The position numbers and the translations under genes were made by a program. The notes under the pieces were generated by a model. That model did not search any database. It saw only the letters and a program-made list of their open reading frames with translations, and had not been told where the DNA came from. A DNA stretch of 30,263 bases, taken from positions 1 to 30,263 of IMG/VR virus record IMGVR_UViG_3300043466_000488; one strand, given 5' to 3'. Origin of the DNA: a virus. Positions 14,207 to 23,502 of this stretch are shown here, piece by piece. Each line of letters begins with the position of its first letter. Position 1 is the first letter of the stretch.

Positions 14207-14242
14207 CCCCCCGACTTCCCCCCGTTTCCCCCTAATTCCCCC
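14207..14242 (-). repeat. Four phased G-tracts (possible G-quadruplex or protein-binding repeats)
   Basis: On the minus strand there are four runs of 5, 5, 6 and 6 G separated by 5, 4 and 5 nt, spaced 10-11 nt apart, in otherwise AT-rich DNA. The first G is the last base of the terL TAG stop codon. The pattern meets the usual G-quadruplex rule (four G-tracts, short loops). It also looks like direct repeats at one-helical-turn spacing. Confidence 0.8.
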
Positions 14243-15414
14243 TAAATAAAACTATACCTCCCACTCCCCACATTCTTTTGAAGGTGCTGCCAAGCAAGGG
14301 AAAGACTAACAACGCAGTCATCATGAAATCCCTGAGGTGCGGAATACTTTACCCCGAATGAGGTGTATTGATATTCAAAGATTTCAAGTTCATCCACAAT
14401 AGGACCTGGGGGGAAGGTAATCTTCCTTTGGTGGATAGCGGATGCAAGACCCTCCATTAGCATTTGCTTTGAAGTACTGCTGAACTTATACCCTTGTACA
14501 TCTAATCCCTCCCTTTGCATATCCTCAAAGATTGGGTCACCTACCCCTGTACTATCCATCAGGATTGGTGCTTTAGGTAAATTGACAATATACTCCTTAG
14601 TTTGCCTCCAATCCCTTTGGAAGCGTTCATAATGGCATACAGACCCATTCTTGTCAAGTCCTATCACCACAGTCCAGTCAACCGCTTTGGCAAGGTCTAT
14701 GCCGTAACAGGCAACAGGATTGGTGGACATCGGAAAGATGCACTGCCTTATGTAAGCAGACCCAAAAGGATTGGCAGCATTCTCGGCAGGGTTTGCCATA
14801 TATTCCTGCTCAAAGACTACTTCAGGAAGTTGCATCCTTGCAGAGTCAACCTCTGACTTATCAATATAGGGATTGTCATAAGTACTAAACTTAAACGATT
14901 GCCAATCTTCTTCACCTCCGTTCCCTTTCATAAAAAGTGAATAGAAGTAGTTCTTACCCTTTGGAGTAGACAAGAACAATGCCTTGCCCTTGTAATCTGT
15001 CAAGGTAGGTCTGATACTATTCAACCACCCATCCTCAAGATTAGGGATGAAAGATGCCTCATCTATGATGCAAAGGTGAAACTTGAGACCCCTAAGATTA
15101 TCCAACCTTTCACCCGTAAAGAATCGGATTGTGCCACCCGTGATGAAAGTAATCACCAAGTCTGCCTCATTCTTTTTGTAGATTTCAAGAGGTAGCATCT
15201 CTAACAACTCTTGAAAGAATATTTTACCGAGTTGATAGGTCGGTGTTATGTATGCCACCCTCTTGCCCTCAATACCGCTTTCTAAGGCGATTGTTTGACT
15301 GATTAAGGACTTGCCAAACCTTCGCCCTGCCATCATCACAATAAACCTTTTATCGCAATCTATGACCTTTCTTTGGGCATCATGTGGATTGTAAAGTTTT
15401 ACGTTAGCGGTCAC
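14242..15414 (-). CDS. terL: Terminase large subunit
   Basis: 390 aa. The ATPase domain has Walker A AGRRFGKS (residues 29-36), Walker B LCIIDEA (114-120, catalytic E119) and the coupling motif FLSTPKG (147-153). The nuclease domain starts at YGIDLAKAVDWT (D239) and includes MDSTGVGD and a final FHDDCVVSLSLA with paired aspartates. All motor and nuclease residues are present. At 390 aa it is on the short side for the family. The gene overlaps the terS end by 11 nt. It packages DNA into the prohead through the portal. The G-tract array begins at its stop codon. Confidence 0.95.
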   Translation of the reverse strand: MTANVKLYNPHDAQRKVIDCDKRFIVMMAGRRFGKSLISQTIALESGIEGKRVAYITPTYQLGKIFFQELLEMLPLEIYKKNEADLVITFITGGTIRFFTGERLDNLRGLKFHLCIIDEASFIPNLEDGWLNSIRPTLTDYKGKALFLSTPKGKNYFYSLFMKGNGGEEDWQSFKFSTYDNPYIDKSEVDSARMQLPEVVFEQEYMANPAENAANPFGSAYIRQCIFPMSTNPVACYGIDLAKAVDWTVVIGLDKNGSVCHYERFQRDWRQTKEYIVNLPKAPILMDSTGVGDPIFEDMQREGLDVQGYKFSSTSKQMLMEGLASAIHQRKITFPPGPIVDELEIFEYQYTSFGVKYSAPQGFHDDCVVSLSLAWQHLQKNVGSGRYSFI

Positions 15415-15832
15415 GGGTGATTTTTATTTCACTTACTTCATGTTTGTTCTCGGTCTTTTCTACAAGGTTGTTCAATCTTTGCGTAATGCTCGGGTTATAG
15501 ATACCTGCCATACCTCCACGAATTTGGTCTTGCCTGATTGTTTCCCTTATACGCGAACAGATAAGTGAAAATTCTTCGTATGCTCCATTCAAGTTCTTAA
15601 AATAGTCATGAATTGACCTTGCTATTCCGTTATTATAACACCATATTGAGAATCCTTCAAGTGTCAAAGGTGCTTCCTTTTCTCTTATAACTTGCTTTGC
15701 CATACCTCCTACCCAGTCTTTAACCTTGATAGGATTACTCTTTTCATATTCCACATATTGAAGGAATAATTCAAGCATTATTTCGGGAGTTTCTATGTTG
15801 CGAGGTCTTCCAACCTTGTTTGTCTTTGCCAT
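15404..15832 (-). CDS. terS: Terminase small subunit
   Basis: 142 aa. It starts with a GRPRNIETPEIMLELFLQYVEY DNA-binding-type segment and ends with IRETIRQDQIRGGMAGIYN followed by PSITQRLNNLVEKTE, a motif highly typical of the P22 gp3-like/Terminase_6-type small terminases that recognise the packaging start site. It follows the methyltransferase gene by 1 nt and overlaps terL by 11 nt. Confidence 0.88.
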   Translation of the reverse strand: MAKTNKVGRPRNIETPEIMLELFLQYVEYEKSNPIKVKDWVGGMAKQVIREKEAPLTLEGFSIWCYNNGIARSIHDYFKNLNGAYEEFSLICSRIRETIRQDQIRGGMAGIYNPSITQRLNNLVEKTENKHEVSEIKITRDR

Positions 15833-15833
15833 C

Positions 15834-16505
15834 TTATTTCAATTTTGTAAGTACCCTATTGTGTACTAAGTTAAGTTCGTGCTTCCAATGTTCGGTTTGT
15901 CCTTCCTTTGGTAGGAATTGGTCTACTGCGTTTGATACTGATTGAATCCCTGCGAAGTAACCCCACGGCATTTGGATAGCATTATTACAGTCATCAATGA
16001 CCAGTGTACCGCCTACCTTTAGAATTGGTAGATAGTTCTTTAGGTCAGATATTACCACCTCGTAAGTATGTCCTCCATCAATGTAAAGAACATCGGGAGG
16101 ATTTTGAGAGGCAAGTTTGACTGCATTTGGGTTGGTAGAATCTAATCGGATTAATTCGTAGTCTTCCACAATCTTGAATGTTTTATGCAGTTTAAGTATG
16201 TCTGCTTCGTAATCTGATTCCCAATGCCCATCAGACATATCAAGAGGTGTGATGCCTATTCGCCTAACCTTTTTGCCGTGTCGGTCCGCAAGTATCTTGA
16301 TAAGTCCAAGTATCTGCCCACGAAATACTCCTATCTCCATAAAGGTAAATTCTTTTGGCATCCTTGCGACAATATCATTCCACATCCAAAGAAAACACCT
16401 TTCACCGAACCCGAAAGCGTTTGCTTCTATCCAGTCCCGATACTCTTTCAGTTCTTGGTCAGCGTTGACCTTATCGGTGTACTCCTTAACTATCCATTCC
16501 ATCAT
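15834..16505 (-). CDS. Class I SAM-dependent methyltransferase
   Basis: 223 aa. Motif I is FMEIGVFRGQ (residues ~55-64), and the DVLYIDGGHTYEVVISDL block (~138-155) followed by LKVGGTLVIDD (~162-172) is typical of the Methyltransf_24/CmcI-like group acting on small molecules or sugars. It is not a DNA methyltransferase: no DPPY or PCQ motif is seen. It lies at the end of a run of glycosyltransferase genes and overlaps the previous one by 4 nt, so it probably methylates a glycan or saccharide made by the same set. Confidence 0.75.
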   Translation of the reverse strand: MMEWIVKEYTDKVNADQELKEYRDWIEANAFGFGERCFLWMWNDIVARMPKEFTFMEIGVFRGQILGLIKILADRHGKKVRRIGITPLDMSDGHWESDYEADILKLHKTFKIVEDYELIRLDSTNPNAVKLASQNPPDVLYIDGGHTYEVVISDLKNYLPILKVGGTLVIDDCNNAIQMPWGYFAGIQSVSNAVDQFLPKEGQTEHWKHELNLVHNRVLTKLK

Positions 16506-17125
16506 AGTTGGTAAAATTTAGTCATATCGGTTTTCCCGTTCCCGTGAATGAACATAGGGAAGGTATGTGTTTTATTATTGTACAATCTATTGTACGTTAG
16601 AGTAAAGTCTCCTTCCACCTCAAACGCAACGGATTGAAAGATGTTACAATAATCCAGTCCAATCTTGTTGGGCATTGCAAGGAAGCGGTCCGTGTACCAA
16701 CGTTGGTCATCATCTTCATACTTTGGGGGATTGCTATGGTAGATATCAAGGAAGTCCTTTTTGTTTCCGTAAATCTGCCCACTGTTTAAGAACTTCCATT
16801 CGTGATTAACCACTGGAAACTTGCCCATGTTATGTACATCGGGATAACATCCTTTCTCGGAACTTATAATCAAACCGCTTTGTCCTCTGTGTTTATAATT
16901 AAACTCATCGGGATTAGATATGCAATAATTATCGTAAGCATCAAGGTAGATGAATTCATCCGTGTCGGTTGAGCATAGGTACTCATAAAGTCCTATTATC
17001 TTAGTTCCAAATCCTTTCCACTCCTTTACGATTGAATGATATGCCCACCCGTGTTGTTTTAGGGATTGTTCCAACTTCAACCACCCTGGGTGATTTATAT
17101 TATCAAGTGATACGATTACTTTCAT
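16502..17125 (-). CDS. Glycosyltransferase, PLOD-type GT domain
   Basis: 207 aa. The 'FIYLDAYDNY' segment (D62-D65) and 'KFLNSGQIYG' (LNSG 113-116), 'DDDQ' (138-141) and the C-terminal 'HGNGK' (194-198) are the defining motifs of the procollagen lysyl hydroxylase/glycosyltransferase GT domain, also common in phage and giant virus genomes. The acidic DxxD should bind the metal and nucleotide sugar. It overlaps its neighbours on both sides by 4 nt (ATGA), so it is coupled to the GT2 gene and the methyltransferase. The acceptor is unknown. Confidence 0.75.
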   Translation of the reverse strand: MKVIVSLDNINHPGWLKLEQSLKQHGWAYHSIVKEWKGFGTKIIGLYEYLCSTDTDEFIYLDAYDNYCISNPDEFNYKHRGQSGLIISSEKGCYPDVHNMGKFPVVNHEWKFLNSGQIYGNKKDFLDIYHSNPPKYEDDDQRWYTDRFLAMPNKIGLDYCNIFQSVAFEVEGDFTLTYNRLYNNKTHTFPMFIHGNGKTDMTKFYQL

Positions 17126-17904
17126 TGAAAAGGATTGTAGTATATTGGTCTTGTGCCGTGATAGTATTCATGGGTCATTTTAATAACCTGTTGGGTTACC
17201 TCTGAACTGTGTTTCTCCTTCCACGTTTGGTATTCCGTTTCCCCTTTGTCAATGTGTTCAATCTCAATATGCGGAAGAAACACGTTCCACATTCCTGCAA
17301 CTGTTGACCTATGAGATGCAAGGACATCATCGTAACCATAGAGGTTAGGTTGGCAAAGATACCCTATTTTATCAAGCAAAGCGGATGAATACATTTGACA
17401 AGTTCCGATTATGTGATGGCACTTCTCAACTATAATCCAACGCTGACCTGCAAAGTGTGGTAGCATTATTAATTCGCTTCTCCAATCAGGCAAGGCATGG
17501 TTTGGTTCTTCCCAACAATCTTTACGCTTTAGACCTACAATTCCTATCCTTGCTTCTCTTTGTATTGCATCTGCCATCTCCTTTACCCAATCATTGTAGT
17601 TTATGGTAACATCGTTATCCATCTTGATACAATGCTGACCAATCTTTCTATGCTTCCAAGCGAGGTTAATTGCTTCTGCCGTTCCAATGTTTTGCTCGTT
17701 TGTGATTAGGTTTATGTACCCATCCTCTGCCCATAACTTTAGCACATCCTTTGTCTGTTGGCAAGAGTTATTATCTATAACCCAAAACTCATGGTCGGTA
17801 AAGATATCTTGATTGTATAAGGCATTCAATACCCTTTCGGTTAGTTCTGACCTTTTGTTTTCTATGGTGTCATGCACCGCCATTGCGATTAGTACCTTAT
17901 CCAT
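17122..17904 (-). CDS. Family 2-type glycosyltransferase
   Basis: 260 aa with a GT-A fold pattern: N-terminal 'LIAMAVHDT' strand, 'HEFWVIDNNS' (39-47), 'NIGTAEAINLAW' (72-83) and the DxD motif KMDNDV (D96, D98). The later 'GTCQMYSSALLDKIGYL' and 'GYDDVLASHR' are the usual acceptor-side motifs (ED/DD residue). It probably transfers a sugar to a glycan or to a phage or host surface component. It is separated by 5 nt from the small gene upstream. Confidence 0.8.
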   Translation of the reverse strand: MDKVLIAMAVHDTIENKRSELTERVLNALYNQDIFTDHEFWVIDNNSCQQTKDVLKLWAEDGYINLITNEQNIGTAEAINLAWKHRKIGQHCIKMDNDVTINYNDWVKEMADAIQREARIGIVGLKRKDCWEEPNHALPDWRSELIMLPHFAGQRWIIVEKCHHIIGTCQMYSSALLDKIGYLCQPNLYGYDDVLASHRSTVAGMWNVFLPHIEIEHIDKGETEYQTWKEKHSSEVTQQVIKMTHEYYHGTRPIYYNPFQ

Positions 17905-17909
17905 TGTGT

Positions 17910-18152
17910 TTAGTTAATTAGTTCTGATATGATAATGTTATGGTCGCTCATCAATAGTTCAAATTCATCAAAGACCAACTCAACTGCTTCATATTCACTT
18001 AGTCCTTTCTCCTCTACCAAGTTCATTAACCTTTTTTTAGTATTATAATGAAAGGTGTGGATTGCAGACATCAGTGCTTCAGACTTTACACACCTTAAAT
18101 GTGCAGTCCTTTCATCAATGTCATCAAGGTCAAAGGTTAATGTTGCTTTCAT
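17910..18152 (-). CDS. Small conserved phage protein, unknown function
   Basis: 80 aa, starting MKATLTFDLDDIDERTAHLR. The start 'MKATLtFDLdd.DE..aHlR.VKs' is a recurrent small phage protein whose role I do not know. It is acidic and helical with no membrane segment. It sits between two glycosyltransferase genes, overlapping the upstream one by 4 nt, and in other phages it occurs outside such clusters, so a direct link to glycosylation is doubtful. Confidence 0.65.
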   Translation of the reverse strand: MKATLTFDLDDIDERTAHLRCVKSEALMSAIHTFHYNTKKRLMNLVEEKGLSEYEAVELVFDEFELLMSDHNIIISELIN

Positions 18153-19150
18153 AATGCGTTGAATATTTGTGTTCTTAATTGATTTACCTTGACCAAGTTA
18201 AAGTTTTCTCTGCACCACTCACCATTCGCAATTCCCATCTCTTGCCTATAAATAGCATCTTTGACAACTTTTTTAATATTTGTGAACCAATCGGATTGAT
18301 TGTTTACAGGTATGATATGCTTACAATCAGAATAAGGTTTTACGTTTGATGCTATAACTGGTGCATTCTTAGTCGCTGCCTCTAATACTTTTAGATTGCT
18401 TTTCATTGAGTTGAACTTGGATGCAACCAAAGGAACAAGACAAGCATCTGCTTCATTGTAAAAATTCATGTATTGGTCAACTGGCAACGCTGCACGTATG
18501 TAACCATCAACCTTAAACCCGTGTAGGTAATCGTTAATCATTCTACCCCATACGTTTGCAACATTCTTGTCTTCACTATAACCGCAAAGGATAAATGTTG
18601 ACTTGCTTTTTACCATTGCATCACCTGCCACCCTTTTCATCGGGTTTCTAAGGATTGCAATGTCCTTCTCGTGAGTTACTGAACCAGCGTAAACAAACCT
18701 TACCCTATCGGATTCAGTCTTTACATCAGTGAACTGGTCCTCGCCATAAGGCAAAGCGTTTGGAACTACCACACAGTTTTTATTTAAATAGTACATCTCC
18801 CATGCCAAAAGTTCATTTGAAGATATTACCATATCTGCTGCTCTTATGTGGTCTCTTACCTTTTGAGTTGGATATTTACCATATAGAATATGCCAAGGGT
18901 CAAGATACCAATAGTCATCTATATCAACTACTAACTTGAATCCGTACTTCTCACGCAATCTTAATACCTCATCAACCTCCATACCTGCTATGTACCGATT
19001 GATAAAAAGTATGTCATATCCTTTTTCAAGTTCTTCCTCGGTAAGTACATCGGTCATCATTGCGTAATCCTTTGGCAAGTAGATTAAAGGATTGAATAAC
19101 CTATGGAAAGAGACCCCCGAATTACGCTGACCGACTGTTATGATTTTCAT
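18149..19150 (-). CDS. GT-B type glycosyltransferase (GT1/GT4-like)
   Basis: 333 aa. N-terminal domain with 'GVSFHRLFNPLIYLP' (donor/acceptor loop) and 'LVVDIDDYWYLDPWHILY', then an Rossmann-type C-domain: 'FVYAGSVTHEKDIAIL' (165-185), 'ADACLVPLVASKFNSMKSNLKVLEAA' and 'APVIASN' near residues 245-285, the region that binds the nucleotide sugar in GT-B enzymes. It lacks the classic EX7E but keeps 'K..KvlEA', as many phage members do. First of three glycosyltransferases before the methyltransferase. Confidence 0.75.
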   Translation of the reverse strand: MKIITVGQRNSGVSFHRLFNPLIYLPKDYAMMTDVLTEEELEKGYDILFINRYIAGMEVDEVLRLREKYGFKLVVDIDDYWYLDPWHILYGKYPTQKVRDHIRAADMVISSNELLAWEMYYLNKNCVVVPNALPYGEDQFTDVKTESDRVRFVYAGSVTHEKDIAILRNPMKRVAGDAMVKSKSTFILCGYSEDKNVANVWGRMINDYLHGFKVDGYIRAALPVDQYMNFYNEADACLVPLVASKFNSMKSNLKVLEAATKNAPVIASNVKPYSDCKHIIPVNNQSDWFTNIKKVVKDAIYRQEMGIANGEWCRENFNLVKVNQLRTQIFNAL

Positions 19151-19449
19151 TGCTTATTTTTAAATGGTCTACCTTTTTTCTTTGGCACTTGTACAGGTTC
19201 TTGTACAACTTCCGCATCAAGCAACTTGGATGCTTGGTATGAATCCCAATAGTTGCTCAATCGCTTCATCATGTCGGCAACACAACTGCTGCACCAACTT
19301 GTAAGGATAAACCCAGGGTCAAGATACCTTCTATAAATCTGCTCATAACCTACAAGGATGTGCAAAGGAAGGTTCTTCATAAACCCAATCTTTACGCATT
19401 CAAAGTTGTAGATGTTGTCTTGAATAAACTTTTCATCTTCTTGTGTCAT
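19147..19449 (-). CDS. Small protein with paired cysteines, unknown
   Basis: 100 aa. The 'EQIYRRYLDPGFILTSWCSSCVADMMKRL' segment contains a CxxC pair within a helical region, and the C-terminus is basic (KKKGRPFKN). It resembles small Bacteroidota phage proteins with the pattern 'yr.yldp.y....WC..C'. The basic tail suggests nucleic-acid contact, but nothing more can be said. It overlaps the GT-B gene by 4 nt. Confidence 0.6.
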   Translation of the reverse strand: MTQEDEKFIQDNIYNFECVKIGFMKNLPLHILVGYEQIYRRYLDPGFILTSWCSSCVADMMKRLSNYWDSYQASKLLDAEVVQEPVQVPKKKGRPFKNKQ

Positions 19450-19454
19450 TTTGA

Positions 19455-19706
19455 TTATTTTTTAAAAAATATGTTATTCATTAGGTTTCTAAATAGCGGA
19501 GCAGATACCCCTGCGACAAATGCCACCAAAACGCAATTTAAGACCCATAGAGGCAGGAAGTACAAAGCAATGGCAACATATACGGAAAGGCACATATTGC
19601 AGGAAAATGGTTTAAAGTTAATCTTCCACCTTTCGGGTAGTCTTGCCATATCAATAAAGTAGAAAACGGAGAAAAGGGATGCAATAACAATTTTAAGGAG
19701 TAACAT
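19455..19706 (-). CDS. Small integral membrane protein
   Basis: 83 aa with an N-terminal hydrophobic segment (residues ~2-18) and a second (~45-70). Between them the segment 'ARLPERWKINFKPFSCNMCLS' carries a CxxC pair. The pattern 'P..wk..fkPfsC..CLs' recurs in phage membrane proteins of unknown role. Its start overlaps the sigma-like gene end by 14 nt. Confidence 0.6.
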   Translation of the reverse strand: MLLLKIVIASLFSVFYFIDMARLPERWKINFKPFSCNMCLSVYVAIALYFLPLWVLNCVLVAFVAGVSAPLFRNLMNNIFFKK

Positions 19707-20208
19707 GGTTTTTGATTTTATATTTTAAAAGTGTTTTAGTTTTTTTAATCGTTTTCATCAGTGAACGGTATGGGATTCCAGTATCCCTTGAAAGGGACAT
19801 TATGTTCTGCCCATTCTCGGAATAAAGTCTAAGTATTTCAAGTTCGTACCAATGTAAAATCTTTAAAGAATTATTTAATTTGACAGTTATCTCATCGGTT
19901 TGTATGGTATCGCTTACATCGGGTGCATCGTGTTTCTCGGTCCATTCCGTGAATACCTTGCGGAACTTATTGAAGAAAGTTGACCTATCCGATTTTATCA
20001 TTGATAGCATTGTGCGAACCAAGTAGAACTTTAAAAACCCTCCGTTGTGCATTGACATAAACTTCACCTCATCCATCTCACAAAGTACCATAAACATCTC
20101 TTGCCTCAAATCATCTTGCAACTCAAAAGGTTGCATCTTTTTGATGGCATTGTCTATATCCTTGTCGGTGTATAGACCTGCTATGATATCGTTCTTTGTC
20201 AGACCCAT
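19693..20208 (-). CDS. Sigma-70-like transcription factor
   Basis: 171 aa. Residues ~30-75 ('DDLRQEMFMVLCEMDEVKF', 'LKFYLVRTMLSMIKSD') resemble sigma region 2. Residues ~115-165 ('LHWYELEILRLYSENGQNIMSLSRDTGIPYRSLMKTIK') resemble the region 4 helix-turn-helix of ECF-like sigma factors (bulky hydrophobic 'E..IL.LY', then 'ls..tgip...l...ik'). The gene lies just before the late (glycosylation, packaging and structural) genes and could direct their transcription. It overlaps the nuclease gene by 10 nt. Divergence is high, so a DNA-binding regulator is an alternative. Confidence 0.6.
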   Translation of the reverse strand: MGLTKNDIIAGLYTDKDIDNAIKKMQPFELQDDLRQEMFMVLCEMDEVKFMSMHNGGFLKFYLVRTMLSMIKSDRSTFFNKFRKVFTEWTEKHDAPDVSDTIQTDEITVKLNNSLKILHWYELEILRLYSENGQNIMSLSRDTGIPYRSLMKTIKKTKTLLKYKIKNHVTP

Positions 20209-20504
20209 TCGCTTAGTTCGGGGATGCCTTTGTTATCTGTTGCAAGGTAACACAATGCCCCAGCATTTTTTGCTCTATTGAGAAAAACTATTTGATAATC
20301 ACTAAGTTTATCCGCAATTGTCTTTACCTCGCAATATACCGCCTTACCAGTTGTTTTGCAGAATCCAGTAATATCTGCCACACCACGTTCGCCAATAAAC
20401 TTCCTTCCAGGTACGCTTAAATTATTGTTTCGCCACACATAGTAACCTTTGGATTCCAACTTCATTAATGCAAACTTTGTTATCATTCCTGCGGTTAAGT
20501 GCAT
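20199..20504 (-). CDS. VRR-NUC-type PD-(D/E)XK nuclease
   Basis: 101 aa. The active-site block is 'GERGVADITGF' (D44) followed by 'GKAVYCEVKT' (E59-x-K61) and a Q in the following helix (SDYQIVFLNRAKNAG), the VRR-NUC order. Such stand-alone phage proteins act as structure-specific nucleases, for example Holliday-junction resolvases or flap processors. The first methionine (MHLTAGM) was used; M7 is also possible. Confidence 0.75.
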   Translation of the reverse strand: MHLTAGMITKFALMKLESKGYYVWRNNNLSVPGRKFIGERGVADITGFCKTTGKAVYCEVKTIADKLSDYQIVFLNRAKNAGALCYLATDNKGIPELSEWV

Positions 20505-21328
20505 TATTTTTTATATTGATTTGATAAAATCATTGGAGTAGTATTAACCCATTTTATTGAATGGTGAATCCTTTTATTGTTAGAATTCATCATTGATGCT
20601 TTAACACTTGAAGGTTGCATCATAACCGAATGAAAAGATTTTACATAAGTACCCGTTAAAGCATATTCATCAGTCATTCCTCCATTGTTACTTTGAGTAT
20701 CTTTTTGGTCTAATTGAATATTAGTAAAAGTAAAAAAAACATCACCCCTACTTCCTAAAGTTGTGTAAGTATTTACATCCTCATTGATTGACCCTATGAA
20801 TTGAAATGGTCTATCCGTTGAGCAAAAAAAACTATTCATACACTTCCTTTTTAATTTTATACCACTAAATCCCCCGATATGGTCTCCGCCTTGCGAAAAT
20901 GCAATACTTTTAATATCAACCGATTTATAGAAGTCAAGCATTATATTAAAAACCTTGTCTAAATTTTTAATGATTTTAGCACCAGTTTCATATCTATAAC
21001 CAAAATAATAATAGTCATCATCCATTTGTACAAAGTATTTTATTCCTATTTCTTGTGCAATCTTAAACGATGCGTTCCTTGCGTGTATAATAACCTTTCT
21101 ATTATCAAAGTTGTTTCCCTCATCAATCTCATCCGCCATCAATTTTTTATCAAATATTTTAACATTGTCTATTCCATAGTTTTTTTGATATTTATTGATA
21201 TGTTTATCTTCATTATCTACTATAAAATAAATTGGACCAGTATAACCACATTTCTTCAATGTAGTATAGGTTTTGACATTGTCAGGTCTTCCATGCGTAA
21301 GTATAAATACCGCAAAATTATTCTCCAT
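20504..21328 (-). CDS. Glycosyltransferase, TET-associated (TAGT)-like
   Basis: 274 aa from the ATG at 21328, which overlaps the stop codon of the upstream gene (TATGGAGAATAA). A longer frame up to 21403 is less likely. Motifs are 'FILTHGRPDNVKTYTTLKKCGYTG', 'FIVDNEDK', 'HARNASF' (82-88), a triple acidic QMDDDYYYFGY (D103-D105, metal/sugar binding), 'INEDVNTYTTLGS' and a C-terminal 'IHHSIKWVNTTPMIL'. This is the pattern annotated in phages as TET-associated glycosyltransferase, thought to glucosylate modified cytosines or thymines in DNA. No TET/JBP, hydroxymethylase or thymidylate-synthase homologue is in the window. The family call is from memory of the motif order. Confidence 0.65.
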   Translation of the reverse strand: MENNFAVFILTHGRPDNVKTYTTLKKCGYTGPIYFIVDNEDKHINKYQKNYGIDNVKIFDKKLMADEIDEGNNFDNRKVIIHARNASFKIAQEIGIKYFVQMDDDYYYFGYRYETGAKIIKNLDKVFNIMLDFYKSVDIKSIAFSQGGDHIGGFSGIKLKRKCMNSFFCSTDRPFQFIGSINEDVNTYTTLGSRGDVFFTFTNIQLDQKDTQSNNGGMTDEYALTGTYVKSFHSVMMQPSSVKASMMNSNNKRIHHSIKWVNTTPMILSNQYKK

Positions 21329-21716
21329 ATTCTTCCAAGTATTGTTTTTTAATATCATCGCAAAGTTTAATATATCCATAATCAATAGCATCTTCAAAAT
21401 CAATTATCACAAGACCACTTCGTTCCATTAAATGTTGCATTTCTTTACTACTATGTGCATAATAGTCAGCAATTTTTTCATAGTTAAAAACGTTATGTCT
21501 TCTTGCTGCATCAATCAAAAATATTTTTTCATCATAAGATAAAGAAGATTCATCTATTTCCTTTATTAACCTATGTGTTTTTGATTTATCGCATAGTTCA
21601 ATAATATGAGGTTTTGCATTTTTAGGTTCATAAATTGGAGATTCAATTTTTACAGAATATTTTTGCTCATCTTTTTTTGGTGCAAATTCTTGACCAAACA
21701 TATTGATTTGTTTCAT
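21318..21716 (-). CDS. Conserved phage protein next to the TAGT-like gene
   Basis: 132 aa. The block 'KTHRLIKEIDESSLSYDEKIFLIDAARRHNVFNYEKIADYYAHSSKEMQHLMERSGLVIIDFEDAI' is a strongly conserved helical domain seen in many unrelated phages near DNA-processing or modification genes. Its function is not known to me. It overlaps the TAGT-like start (11 nt), which suggests coupled expression. Confidence 0.65.
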   Translation of the reverse strand: MKQINMFGQEFAPKKDEQKYSVKIESPIYEPKNAKPHIIELCDKSKTHRLIKEIDESSLSYDEKIFLIDAARRHNVFNYEKIADYYAHSSKEMQHLMERSGLVIIDFEDAIDYGYIKLCDDIKKQYLEEYGE

Positions 21717-22480
21717 TATTTTGATTTTAAAAGTTTATCAAAGTAATCGGCAACCGCCATCCGATAGCACTGATGCTCCATGTAGTCATCATCCTTTAAC
21801 TTGTTTTTTATGTCAATCTTGTCCTGCCTTGAACCTTCAAACATTTTATCGTTCATTGCCTTTAGGACCTTATCGTAGGTGTCCTCAACCTCTACAATAA
21901 TTTTACCTCGCTTGTGCAGGATATGAAAGACATCAATTCCAAAAACAATGCTATCCCAAATGCGAAACTTAGAGTAACAATCAAACGCAGTTTCTATCTT
22001 TTCATCATCGGTAACAAATCTTGGTTGCCACTTGGAATCTTGCTCAACTGGTTTAATCTCATTTAGTTTCTGCATCCCATACCTTGCAAAAGACCTAAGT
22101 AACCTATGCAAGTACAGGACTGAAAAGTTCTGATAGGTTTCCGATTCCATATCAAGTTTTCCCTTACTTGCTAAGTCAAAAGCAAGGGTTAATTCACCGA
22201 CCTTGATGTTTGGGTATTCATCAACGATTGACTTATACATAACCGATAGTTCCTCTTTATTGGGTATCTTATCTCCCTTGATGCCAAGTTTGTGCATACC
22301 CCTTATAAGTTCATCAACGACAAGAGCAATGCTTACTGTGTTTAACTTTTCCGATGTCCTTGCAAGTTTAAAGCGTTCCAAATCCACCGCTTCGGATTCT
22401 GTCAATCTCGGAGAAGTAGTCATGGAGTTCGTTCCGTTTCTCATTATAGATGTCAAAGTTTGACTTAGTGCTTGTTCCAT
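21716..22480 (-). CDS. Protein of unknown function in the replication module
   Basis: 254 aa, starting MEQALSQTLTSIMRNGTNSM; M20 is an alternative start. Its first 37 codons overlap the end of the replication-initiator-like gene. It is mostly helical ('VALVVDELIRGMHKLGIKGDKIPNKEELSVMYKSIVDEYP', 'LYLHRLLRSFARYG') with no P-loop, so it is not a DnaC-type ATPase. The position after the initiator suggests a helicase-loading or replication accessory role, but this is only context. Confidence 0.6.
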   Translation of the reverse strand: MEQALSQTLTSIMRNGTNSMTTSPRLTESEAVDLERFKLARTSEKLNTVSIALVVDELIRGMHKLGIKGDKIPNKEELSVMYKSIVDEYPNIKVGELTLAFDLASKGKLDMESETYQNFSVLYLHRLLRSFARYGMQKLNEIKPVEQDSKWQPRFVTDDEKIETAFDCYSKFRIWDSIVFGIDVFHILHKRGKIIVEVEDTYDKVLKAMNDKMFEGSRQDKIDIKNKLKDDDYMEHQCYRMAVADYFDKLLKSK

Positions 22481-23126
22481 TTTTAGTTTCTTTAAGTTTA
22501 AATAATCCTTTGTAATTGTTTGATATGCTTTGATTTATAACTTTTTTAGCAGTTTCTAAATCACCTCCCGAAAGTTCAACCAAGTTGTTTATGGCAGTTT
22601 GTTCAGTCTTAGCAGACTTAAACTTGTTTCCATGCTCAACCTTTTTATATTCCATCCAACCTTTCCAAACATTTTCCCAATCATCAGAAATAAACTCTAA
22701 TTCTTTTATTTGTATTAAATCTTTCTTTTGTATGGAATTAGTCTTTTGTATAATGGCACTTTCACCGAAGTCGGTAATTTCCGAAGTCGGGTTTTCCCGA
22801 ACTCGGATAGGTTCACTTTCGGCAGGGATGTCATAGACAATATGATTCCAACCTACAAATCTTCCAGTGGTTTGGTCATGCATCTTAATTGACAAGATAT
22901 AACCTTTAGACTGCAACCCCTTAAATGCCCTGTCTATACTCCCAGGTTTATCAGGAAGGTTGTTGTACAGATTCTTTTTGTAAATGACCCAATCCGTTGG
23001 AAGTGATAATAAATAACTCAAAAGACCTTTTTCATCAAGAGACAGAGACTTGGACTTTATCAACTCATTTGGTAAAGTCGTAAACCTTTCGGTTGATTTG
23101 CTCTTTACAATTTGTCCAGTATTCAT
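22368..23126 (-). CDS. Replication-initiator-like protein (winged helix plus DnaD-like C-terminus)
   Basis: 252 aa. The N-terminus 'FTTLPNELIKSKSLSLDEKGLLSYLLSLPTDWVIYKKNL' followed by 'SIDRAFKGLQSKGYILSI' is the RepA/DnaD-type winged-helix domain of plasmid- and phage-type initiators. After a linker, residues ~150-215 ('WENVWKGWMEYKKVEHGNKFKSAKTEQTAI', 'VINQSISNNYKGLF') form the C-terminal 'W..W..yk...' module that ends in 'QSI.NNykGlf', as in DnaD-like C-domains. It is preceded by a consensus promoter (23241-23270) and a structured ~108-nt leader. Confidence 0.7.
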   Translation of the reverse strand: MNTGQIVKSKSTERFTTLPNELIKSKSLSLDEKGLLSYLLSLPTDWVIYKKNLYNNLPDKPGSIDRAFKGLQSKGYILSIKMHDQTTGRFVGWNHIVYDIPAESEPIRVRENPTSEITDFGESAIIQKTNSIQKKDLIQIKELEFISDDWENVWKGWMEYKKVEHGNKFKSAKTEQTAINNLVELSGGDLETAKKVINQSISNNYKGLFKLKETKNGTSTKSNFDIYNEKRNELHDYFSEIDRIRSGGFGTL

Positions 23127-23236
23127 AAAAAAAATACCTTAAAAAGGTTCGGGGGAAACAGGTCAGCTTTCGCAAACCTCCAAACCTTTCTAAGGCATTA
23201 ATAAGTTTATCTTGCACTTGGGTTTCCCTACCAAGT
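23127..23236 (-). promoter_or_regulatory. Structured 5' leader with alternative pairings (candidate attenuator)
   Basis: Read on the minus strand, hairpins are: ACTTGG/CCAAGT (23231-23236 with 23216-23221); a GNRA hairpin closed by GC-GAAA-GC with AGGT/ACCT (23160-23179); and ACCTT-TTT-AAGGT (23136-23148) followed by eight T that run into the ATG. The upstream AAAGGTT (23183-23189) can instead pair with AACCTTT (23143-23149), breaking the last hairpin, and GGGAAAC (23222-23228) can pair with GTTTCCC (23153-23159). Such exclusive pairings are typical of attenuators. The ligand or trigger, if any, is unknown. Confidence 0.5.
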
Positions 23237-23240
23237 ACTC

Positions 23241-23270
23241 CAAATATAACATTTTATTTAACATCTTCAA
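23241..23270 (-). promoter_or_regulatory. Consensus Bacteroidota promoter for the replication gene
   Basis: On the minus strand TTG (23268-23270), exactly 19 nt, then TATATTTG (23241-23248). This is the best match to TTG-N19-TAnnTTTG in the window. The predicted start is near 23234. Confidence 0.7.
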
Positions 23271-23502
23271 CTTTTTTCTTAACTCGGACCGCATATGTTT
23301 TGCCATCAAGTCTGCTGATAACCTTGCGACCTACCTGCCGTAAATCGCTAATCTTATTTGGCGGATATCCCATAAAGTTGCAAACGCACTTACCCGACCG
23401 ATATGTAACCGCTTTCTTTCTGCGTTCTTCAATGTCATCAATGCTAAGGTCGTAGACTAAATACTCAACTGCATTCTCTAAATGATATGTTATGTCCTTC
23501 AA
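23254..23502 (-). CDS. 82-aa protein of unknown function (TTG start)
   Basis: I start it at the TTG at 23502, which overlaps the TGA of the preceding microgene (TTGA); the upstream GTG at 23589 would read through that microgene in another frame. Sequence: helical N-half (KDITYHLENAVEYLVYDLSI), then 'CVCNFMGYPPNKISDLRQVGRKVISRL' and a lysine-rich end. The 'IDDIEERRKKAVTYRSGKCVC' part may bind nucleic acid. The promoter of the next gene lies across its 3' end. Confidence 0.55.
   Translation of the reverse strand: MKDITYHLENAVEYLVYDLSIDDIEERRKKAVTYRSGKCVCNFMGYPPNKISDLRQVGRKVISRLDGKTYAVRVKKKVEDVK

What the first reader, a model, noticed from the sequence alone, without database searches (positions are those of the whole stretch)
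15834..21328. Four glycosyltransferases and a methyltransferase between replication and packaging genes
TAGT-like, GT-B, GT2-like and PLOD-type glycosyltransferases plus a CmcI-like methyltransferase fill much of a 5.5-kb region, with most of the genes coupled by 4-nt overlaps. Four different folds imply a multi-step product: a methylated glycan on DNA, virion protein or host surface. This is the strongest candidate for an undescribed system in the window.
Basis: partly seen in the sequence, partly recalled or inferred. Interest (0 to 1): 0.6.

Follow-up and report, generated by a model that had tools for sequence, protein, structure and literature searches.

The report
Phage sugar-chain gene cassette beside terminase
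A small freshwater phage carries a set of three sugar-attaching enzymes and a methylating enzyme that also travels as a unit in an unrelated phage group, so it probably builds a capped sugar chain on a phage-made molecule, while a fourth sugar enzyme nearby is a separate, inserted two-gene module.

Summary
The genes are real, but the finding merges two things. (1) Block: GT-B (18149-19150), GT2 (17122-17904), PLOD-type glucosyltransferase (16502-17125) and a sugar-type O-methyltransferase (15834-16505). They recur together in most of 18 PLOD clusters, usually just before terminase. In four near-complete phages with an unrelated terminase and portal, these four proteins are nearly all that is shared with the window. 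GT-B, GT2 and PLOD distances correlate with each other, not with TerL; the methyltransferase does not covary. PLOD keeps 8 of 9 published active-site residues of mimivirus R699, which glucosylates an already attached hexose. (2) Insert: TAGT plus a ParB C-terminal domain, 1.22 kb, AT-rich, absent from 21 of 21 relatives that hold both flanking genes. No hydroxymethylase or nucleotide-sugar epimerase was found in the window. Best reading: the block builds a short O-methylated glycan from host UDP-sugars on a phage-made acceptor, most likely a virion protein (0.45). DNA and host surface stay open: no shared virion substrate was found, and DNA-modification cassettes neighbour the block. New variant of a known kind.

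The parts
15834..16505 (-). Class I SAM-dependent methyltransferase (PF13578), predicted metal-dependent sugar O-methyltransferase; capping step
   Evidence: Pfam 1.2e-11; AF2 pLDDT 89, best PDB matches MeT1 6g80 1.3e-11, then SpnH, CalS11 and other O-methyltransferases; invariant D143-G144-H146 and D171-D172 in 11 of 11 sequences; 4-nt overlap with next gene
16502..17125 (-). PLOD-type (collagen glucosyltransferase family) glycosyltransferase, predicted UDP-glucose transfer onto an already attached hexose
   Evidence: PF25342 2.5e-24; profile matches R699 1.9e-31 and human LH3 about 1e-24; K42,E90,N114,D139,D140,Q141,H194,N196 match R699 active-site residues, W118 is Y94
17122..17904 (-). GT2-family GT-A glycosyltransferase, soluble
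   Evidence: PF00535 2e-13; AF2 pLDDT 92, matches PcManGT, polypeptide GalNAc-transferases, TarS/TarP; D96 and D98 invariant in 14 of 14
17910..18152 (-). Small acidic protein p20 (80 aa), variable, unknown
   Evidence: identity 33-100% or absent in close relatives; pI 4.8
18149..19150 (-). GT-B glycosyltransferase of phrog_7162; constant member of the locus
   Evidence: phrog_7162 3.3e-58; kept in relatives that lack GT2-PLOD-MT (L067, L069)
20504..21328 (-). TAGT glycosyltransferase; separate inserted module, not part of the block
   Evidence: PF20691 2e-35, phrog_842 3.1e-66; absent in 21 of 21 relatives with both flanks
21318..21716 (-). Short ParB-like protein (C-terminal domain only), fixed partner of TAGT
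   Evidence: phrog_620 positions 148-215 of 217; directly upstream of TAGT in 76 of 76 loci with room
20490..21713 (.). Extent of the TAGT-ParB insert (about 1.22 kb) relative to close relatives; L046 has 12 nt here
   Evidence: blastn against L046; homology to the distant phage L166 covers 20504-21717
14242..15832 (-). Terminase large and small subunits, directly downstream of the block (context)
   Evidence: phrog_2 8e-42; phrog_606 6e-16

Best explanation
GT-B + GT2 + PLOD-GT + O-MT form a glycan-assembly cassette. One of GT-B/GT2 starts a sugar on an acceptor and the other extends it, the PLOD-type enzyme adds a glucose (expected alpha-1,2) to an attached hexose, and the methyltransferase O-methylates the sugar. 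Donors come from the host. The acceptor is most likely one or more virion proteins, modified in the cytoplasm around assembly. TAGT + ParB-C is an independent cassette. Shown by computation: gene identities, intact motifs, cluster conservation, covariation of three GTs, independence of TAGT. Inferred: order of steps, sugar identity, acceptor.
For: Cluster: GT2 next to PLOD in 16 of 18 PLOD clusters, MT in 14 of 18 and GT-B within 8 kb in 15 of 18 representatives; terminase downstream in 13 of 18 (three faint TerL calls confirmed as terminase). Of 46 window-gene profiles searched against four near-whole phages with another TerL/portal, only the four block proteins and one weak p33 hit match. 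Distance correlations GT2-GTB 0.85, PLOD-GTB 0.82, PLOD-GT2 0.66, P<=4e-4; each of the four against TerL 0.11-0.31, not significant. R699 adds glucose to galactosylhydroxylysine or glucose (PMC9546862 abstract; PMC11838735 passages). Cyanophage PLOD homologues lie beside a tail fibre gene and 2OG-Fe oxygenases. No T4-type hydroxymethylase in 20 of 21 PLOD-bearing records (T4 gp42 is found by the same search). GT2, PLOD and MT are acidic (family median pI 4.8-5.3), unlike TAGT (79 of 79 with pI above 8). No membrane segment in the five enzymes. Absent near terL in 7 of 7 bacterial-genome relatives, against lysogenic conversion.
Against: No virion protein is shared between the two phage groups that carry the block, and L069, which lacks GT2-PLOD-MT, keeps homologues of p7-p14 (coverage 83-100%), so no substrate could be named. 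DNA-modification cassettes sit between MT and TerS in many relatives. The MT does not covary with the GTs. Charge is a weak guide: T4 alpha-GT has pI 6.1. No biochemical or MS data.
Confidence: 0.45

Rival explanations
1. The block builds the methylated glycan on phage DNA; the base acceptor is made by chemistry not recognised here.
For: DNA is an acceptor that unrelated phages share, whereas no virion protein is shared. The slot next to the block holds a ParB_N-N6/N4 DNA methylase or a 7-deazaguanine set (FolE, PTPS/QueD, QueE, TGT-like) in close relatives.
Against: No thymidylate-synthase-type hydroxymethylase in 20 of 21 block records, C5-methylase in 3 of 41 block and TAGT records, no TET-like hit in 21 of 21 though its control was silent. 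Enzymes are acidic. PLOD homologue R699 acts on protein-linked sugar.
Confidence: 0.23
2. The block alters host surface polysaccharide precursors on the cytoplasmic side, blocking superinfection.
For: GT-B, GT2, O-MT and, in other clades at this locus, hexapeptide acyltransferases are the usual make-up of O-antigen-type loci (recalled). A host molecule would also be a shared acceptor.
Against: No membrane segments in the enzymes, so no GtrB-type enzyme; none of the 7 bacterial-genome relatives has the genes within 9 kb of terL. Position just before terminase suggests late expression (inference).
Confidence: 0.18
3. All four glycosyltransferases and the methyltransferase form one five-gene system.
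For: Same strand, 5.5 kb, partly coupled genes.
Against: TAGT in 1 of 21 block records; clean two-gene insert; GC 0.286 against 0.386; TAGT with ParB-C in 76 of 76 loci.
Confidence: 0.04
4. The genes are unrelated accessory genes gathered in a hot spot, each acting alone.
For: MT does not covary with the GTs; p20 and the MT-TerS slot are variable.
Against: GT2 and PLOD adjacent in 16 of 18 clusters and correlated distances of three GTs.
Confidence: 0.1

Closest known systems
Mimivirus R699 / human LH3 GT domain (collagen galactosylhydroxylysyl glucosyltransferase)
   Same: Same Pfam family, 8 of 9 R699 active-site residues kept
   Different: No 2OG oxygenase (0 of 21 records for PF13640), no collagen-like repeats in window structural proteins; sits with GT-B, GT2 and O-MT
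Mycobacteriophage virion glycosylation (Che8, Corndog, Myrna)
   Same: Phage-encoded GTs modifying capsid/tail proteins (passages of PMC12363180; the primary paper is not held)
   Different: Homology of these GTs to Che8 gp110 or Corndog gp38 was not tested; no MS evidence here
T2/T6 TAGT (beta-glucosyl-HMC-alpha-glucosyltransferase)
   Same: The separate TAGT at 20504-21328 is in PF20691/phrog_842
   Different: No alpha/beta-GT match among the window genes scanned and no hydroxymethylase; paired with a ParB C-domain. PMC13216743 (passages) reports 288 of 753 phages with solitary TAGTs
MeT1 and SpnH/CalS11 sugar O-methyltransferases
   Same: Fold and conserved DG-H and DD motifs of the block methyltransferase
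   Different: 20% identity or less; substrate unknown
Gtr-type serotype conversion
   Same: Phage GTs that could act on host glycans
   Different: No membrane GT or flippase seen; absent near terL in bacterial-genome relatives

Membership tests
GT_PLOD (PF25342) | Profile match over curated cut-off | tested here: met
   86.3 against 27 bits
GT_PLOD (PF25342) | Active-site residues of R699 | tested here: met
   8 of 9 identical; W118 is Y94 in the window. K222, named for UDP interaction, is not conserved at the aligned place
Collagen glucosylation system | Collagen or hydroxylysine substrate and hydroxylase partner | tested here: not met
   No run of more than 3 GXY units in p1-p14; PF13640 0 of 21. 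So the enzyme may work like R699, but this is not a collagen-modifying system
RMNT_CmcI (PF04989) | Profile match over curated cut-off | tested here: not met
   17.1 against 23.2 bits
Methyltransf_24 (PF13578) | Profile match and conserved acidic motif | tested here: met
   45.8 against 26.3 bits; D143, H146, D171, D172 invariant; their role as metal site is recalled
TAGT DNA glucosylation system | PF20691 enzyme | tested here: met
   123 against 27.5 bits
TAGT DNA glucosylation system | Hydroxymethylpyrimidine supply (dCMP hydroxymethylase) | tested here: not met
   PF00303 in 0 of 20 TAGT records and not in G000; T4 control rings. Records may be fragments
TAGT DNA glucosylation system | TET/JBP dioxygenase partner | tested here: inconclusive
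   0 of 25 TAGT records and 0 of 21 block records, but no control rang
Phage virion glycosylation | Glycan on a virion protein | not testable with these tools
   Needs mass spectrometry
Gtr serotype conversion | Membrane GT and flippase | tested here: not met
   Highest 19-residue hydropathy 1.38 among the five enzymes; no GtrA or flippase family in the window genes scanned

The most novel reading that the evidence does not exclude
The four-gene block is a DNA hypermodification system of Bacteroidota phages in which a collagen-type glucosyltransferase and an O-methyltransferase extend and cap a sugar on a base whose acceptor group is made by a reaction not yet known; DNA would explain why phages that share almost no other recognisable proteins share this block and why it neighbours DNA-modification cassettes.
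Probability: 0.18. Interest if true: 0.8.

Novelty: new variant of a known kind. Interest (0 to 1): 0.5.

Why it matters
A collagen-type glucosyltransferase as a conserved part of a phage glycan cassette is unusual. The cassette is nearly the only thing shared between two phage groups with unrelated packaging genes, so it should give a benefit that does not depend on the rest of the genome. It is a defined four-enzyme pathway that can be rebuilt in vitro. The TAGT-ParB pair defines solitary TAGTs with a fixed protein partner and no known base acceptor, a question left open in a 2026 paper (PMC13216743, passages).

Tried and rejected
Swap argument: I first took the FolE/QueE and ParB-methylase genes in L067 and L069 as replacements for GT2-PLOD-MT (note). 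One search showed that they coexist with the block in 11 contigs (8 groups) for the methylase and 1 contig for the deazaguanine set, so I dropped mutual exclusion as evidence. Search for a substrate: profiles of all 46 window genes against five fetched records and comparison of p5-p16 in L069 with relatives gave none. Collagen-like repeats: none. Bacterial homologues of PLOD: a scan of genome contigs found none (one narrow pattern set, so not proof of absence). Reference phages: no match for the window GT2, for GT2 of L156 or PLOD of L164. phrog_7162 relatives in Phapecoctavirus sit in a four-GT cluster of unknown role; a paper search for it found nothing. Third terminase lineage (L285, L286, L302): G020 shares the window's structural genes, so it is a terminase swap and not an independent phage group; I count two unrelated groups, not three. 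Papers: three look-ups (recalled as Iyer 2013, Pyle 2024, Freeman 2023) are not held; what I say of that work rests on other papers' passages or recall. Nothing in print on this cluster was found in searches, which cover only the open library.
Full report
What is there. The window is an entire IMG/VR record of 30,263 bases; close relatives reach about 36 kb, so it may be incomplete. Nearly all likely genes run on the minus strand. From upstream to downstream: lysis and replication-type genes, ParB-like (21318-21716), TAGT (20504-21328), a VRR-NUC/Holliday-type nuclease (20199-20504), three small genes, GT-B (18149-19150), a small acidic gene, GT2 (17122-17904), PLOD-GT (16502-17125), methyltransferase (15834-16505), terminase small and large subunits, and structural genes.

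Two units, not one. Window genes were mapped by tblastn on 243 loci in 150 groups. In 21 of 21 groups of close relatives (TerL 80% or more, or the block at 77% or more where TerL is off the locus) that hold both flanking genes p25 and p28, TAGT and the ParB-like gene are missing. At DNA level the window has 1,224 nt (20490-21713) where L046 has 12 nt, and the only DNA match to the distant phage L166 (TerL 75%) in the compared stretch runs from 21717 to 20504, which is the gene pair. The insert has GC 0.286 against 0.386 for the rest; 1 of 581 windows of that size is as low. TAGT was found in 1 of 21 block-bearing records, the window itself. So the pair came in on its own.

The block. A profile from 14 PLOD proteins and the earlier scans gave 174 PLOD ORFs in 174 loci (many are overlapping slices of the same contigs), forming 18 clusters at 60% identity. 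GT2 is next to PLOD in 16 of 18 (L314 is cut, L315 lacks it). MT is present in 14 of 18 representatives (absent in L152, L150 and L315; the L155 contig ends there; L153, also 40% to the window PLOD and very like L150, has it). GT-B lies within 8 kb in 15 of 18 (L056 and L155 are cut, L315 lacks it; in L152 it is on the other strand). Terminase lies downstream in 13 of 18. Three of these have a TerL that scored only 17-19 bits with my profile; PHROGs confirms them as terminase. Several members outside the window group also have a second Methyltransf_24 gene.

Unrelated carriers. Records G009, G011, G012 and G013 (72-75 kb) belong to a group with a phrog_6681-type terminase and P22-like portal, the terminase type of Cellulophaga and Flavobacterium phages. 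Profiles of all 46 window genes against all their ORFs gave only p17, p18, p19 and p21, that is MT, PLOD, GT2 and GT-B, plus p33 in G011 at 1.4e-7. G020, with the third terminase type, shares the whole structural module with the window, so it is not an independent group. In phi38:1, which has no annotated GT gene there, the place just before TerL holds spike, tail and GroES-like genes.

Covariation. Distance matrices over 7-13 shared taxa: GT2-GTB r 0.85, PLOD-GTB 0.82, PLOD-GT2 0.66 (P 2e-4 to 4e-4); MT with any of them -0.04 to 0.22, not significant; any of the four with TerL 0.11 to 0.31, not significant. The three GTs look co-inherited; the MT looks exchanged, as a tailoring enzyme might be. 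The sample is small and the taxa are related.

What the enzymes do. R699 of mimivirus transfers glucose from UDP-glucose to galactosylhydroxylysine (abstract of PMC9546862) and to glucose, giving kojibiose (passages of PMC11838735). Residues K62, E114, N138, D162, D163, Q164, H216 and N218 named there map, through the alignment (chain numbers run 3 higher), to K42, E90, N114, D139, D140, Q141, H194 and N196, all invariant in the 14 sequences; W118 is Y94 in the window. Hence the prediction of a second-sugar step. The GT2 model (pLDDT 92) matches PcManGT, polypeptide GalNAc-transferases and TarS/TarP, which fits several acceptors. The MT model (pLDDT 89) matches MeT1, SpnH and CalS11, sugar O-methyltransferases (role of MeT1 recalled), among other O-methyltransferases. 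No epimerase-type nucleotide-sugar gene in 21 of 21 records (control 14 of 14), so donors are presumably from the host.

Acceptor. For protein: PLOD chemistry, cyanophage homologues next to a tail fibre and 2OG-Fe oxygenases, lack of a T4-type hydroxymethylase (a match in 1 of 21 records, G007, with one stop inside; T4 gp42 is found by the same search), acidic enzymes in contrast to TAGT, basic in 79 of 79 (but the HHTV-2 TAGT is acidic, and T4 alpha-GT has pI 6.1). Against protein: no shared virion protein, and L069, which lacks GT2-PLOD-MT, keeps homologues of p7-p14. For DNA: ParB_N-N6/N4 methylase between MT and TerS in 11 contigs (8 groups) with the block and deazaguanine genes in 1. For host surface: acyltransferase and GT2 in the same locus in other clades. 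Against lysogenic conversion: seven bacterial-genome relatives (L390-L395, L398) lack the genes within 9 kb of terL. A 32.9-kb Chitinophagaceae MAG contig (L389) has GT2 and GT-B plus its own ParB/TAGT-like pair.

Host. TerL relatives at 63-64% lie in a Chitinophagaceae MAG, at 59-61% in Pollutibacter soli and at 49-50% in Mucilaginibacter: Bacteroidota, by inference.

TAGT-ParB. In 76 of 76 loci with room upstream (80 loci examined, the best 80 of 179 matches), a ParB C-terminal domain ends within 60 nt of TAGT. There it is mostly 131-133 aa, whereas in jlb1, HHTV-2 and Escherichia phage 683R6 the ParB has its N-terminal domain. So the C-terminal part is the fixed partner. No thymidylate-synthase-type gene in 20 of 20 TAGT records. 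Its acceptor is unknown; PMC13216743 (passages) notes many solitary TAGTs.

Verdict. A real, conserved glycan cassette, to be split from a separate TAGT module; virion protein is the leading acceptor at 0.45, DNA 0.23, host surface 0.18.

Noticed in passing
L067:6472-9612; L011 from 5638: 7-deazaguanine gene set (FolE, PTPS/QueD, QueE, TGT-like protein) just before terminase in close relatives.
   Followed up: partly
window:14242-15832 and relatives: Close relatives fall into two terminase classes: TerL 93-98% with a p16-type small subunit, and TerL 80-86% without a p16 hit; the second class is the one in which the ParB-methylase or deazaguanine cassette was found, as if terminase and DNA modification were exchanged together.
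   Followed up: partly
window:21318-21716: Phage ParB-like protein reduced to its C-terminal domain and always paired with TAGT.
   Followed up: yes
G007 22863-23363 (L379): Thymidylate-synthase-type match with one TAG inside in one block-bearing record.
   Followed up: no
window:6212-7108; L166:8048-8470: A segment of the head protease gene p9 recurs as a separate 140-aa ORF downstream of GT-B in the distant clade (up to 78% identity).
   Followed up: no
NC_052659.1 88806-91950: Cluster of four glycosyltransferase genes in a Phapecoctavirus, including a phrog_7162-type relative of the window GT-B.
   Followed up: no
window:7133-8788: p10 is far more variable among close relatives (34-94% identity) than its neighbours.
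   Followed up: no
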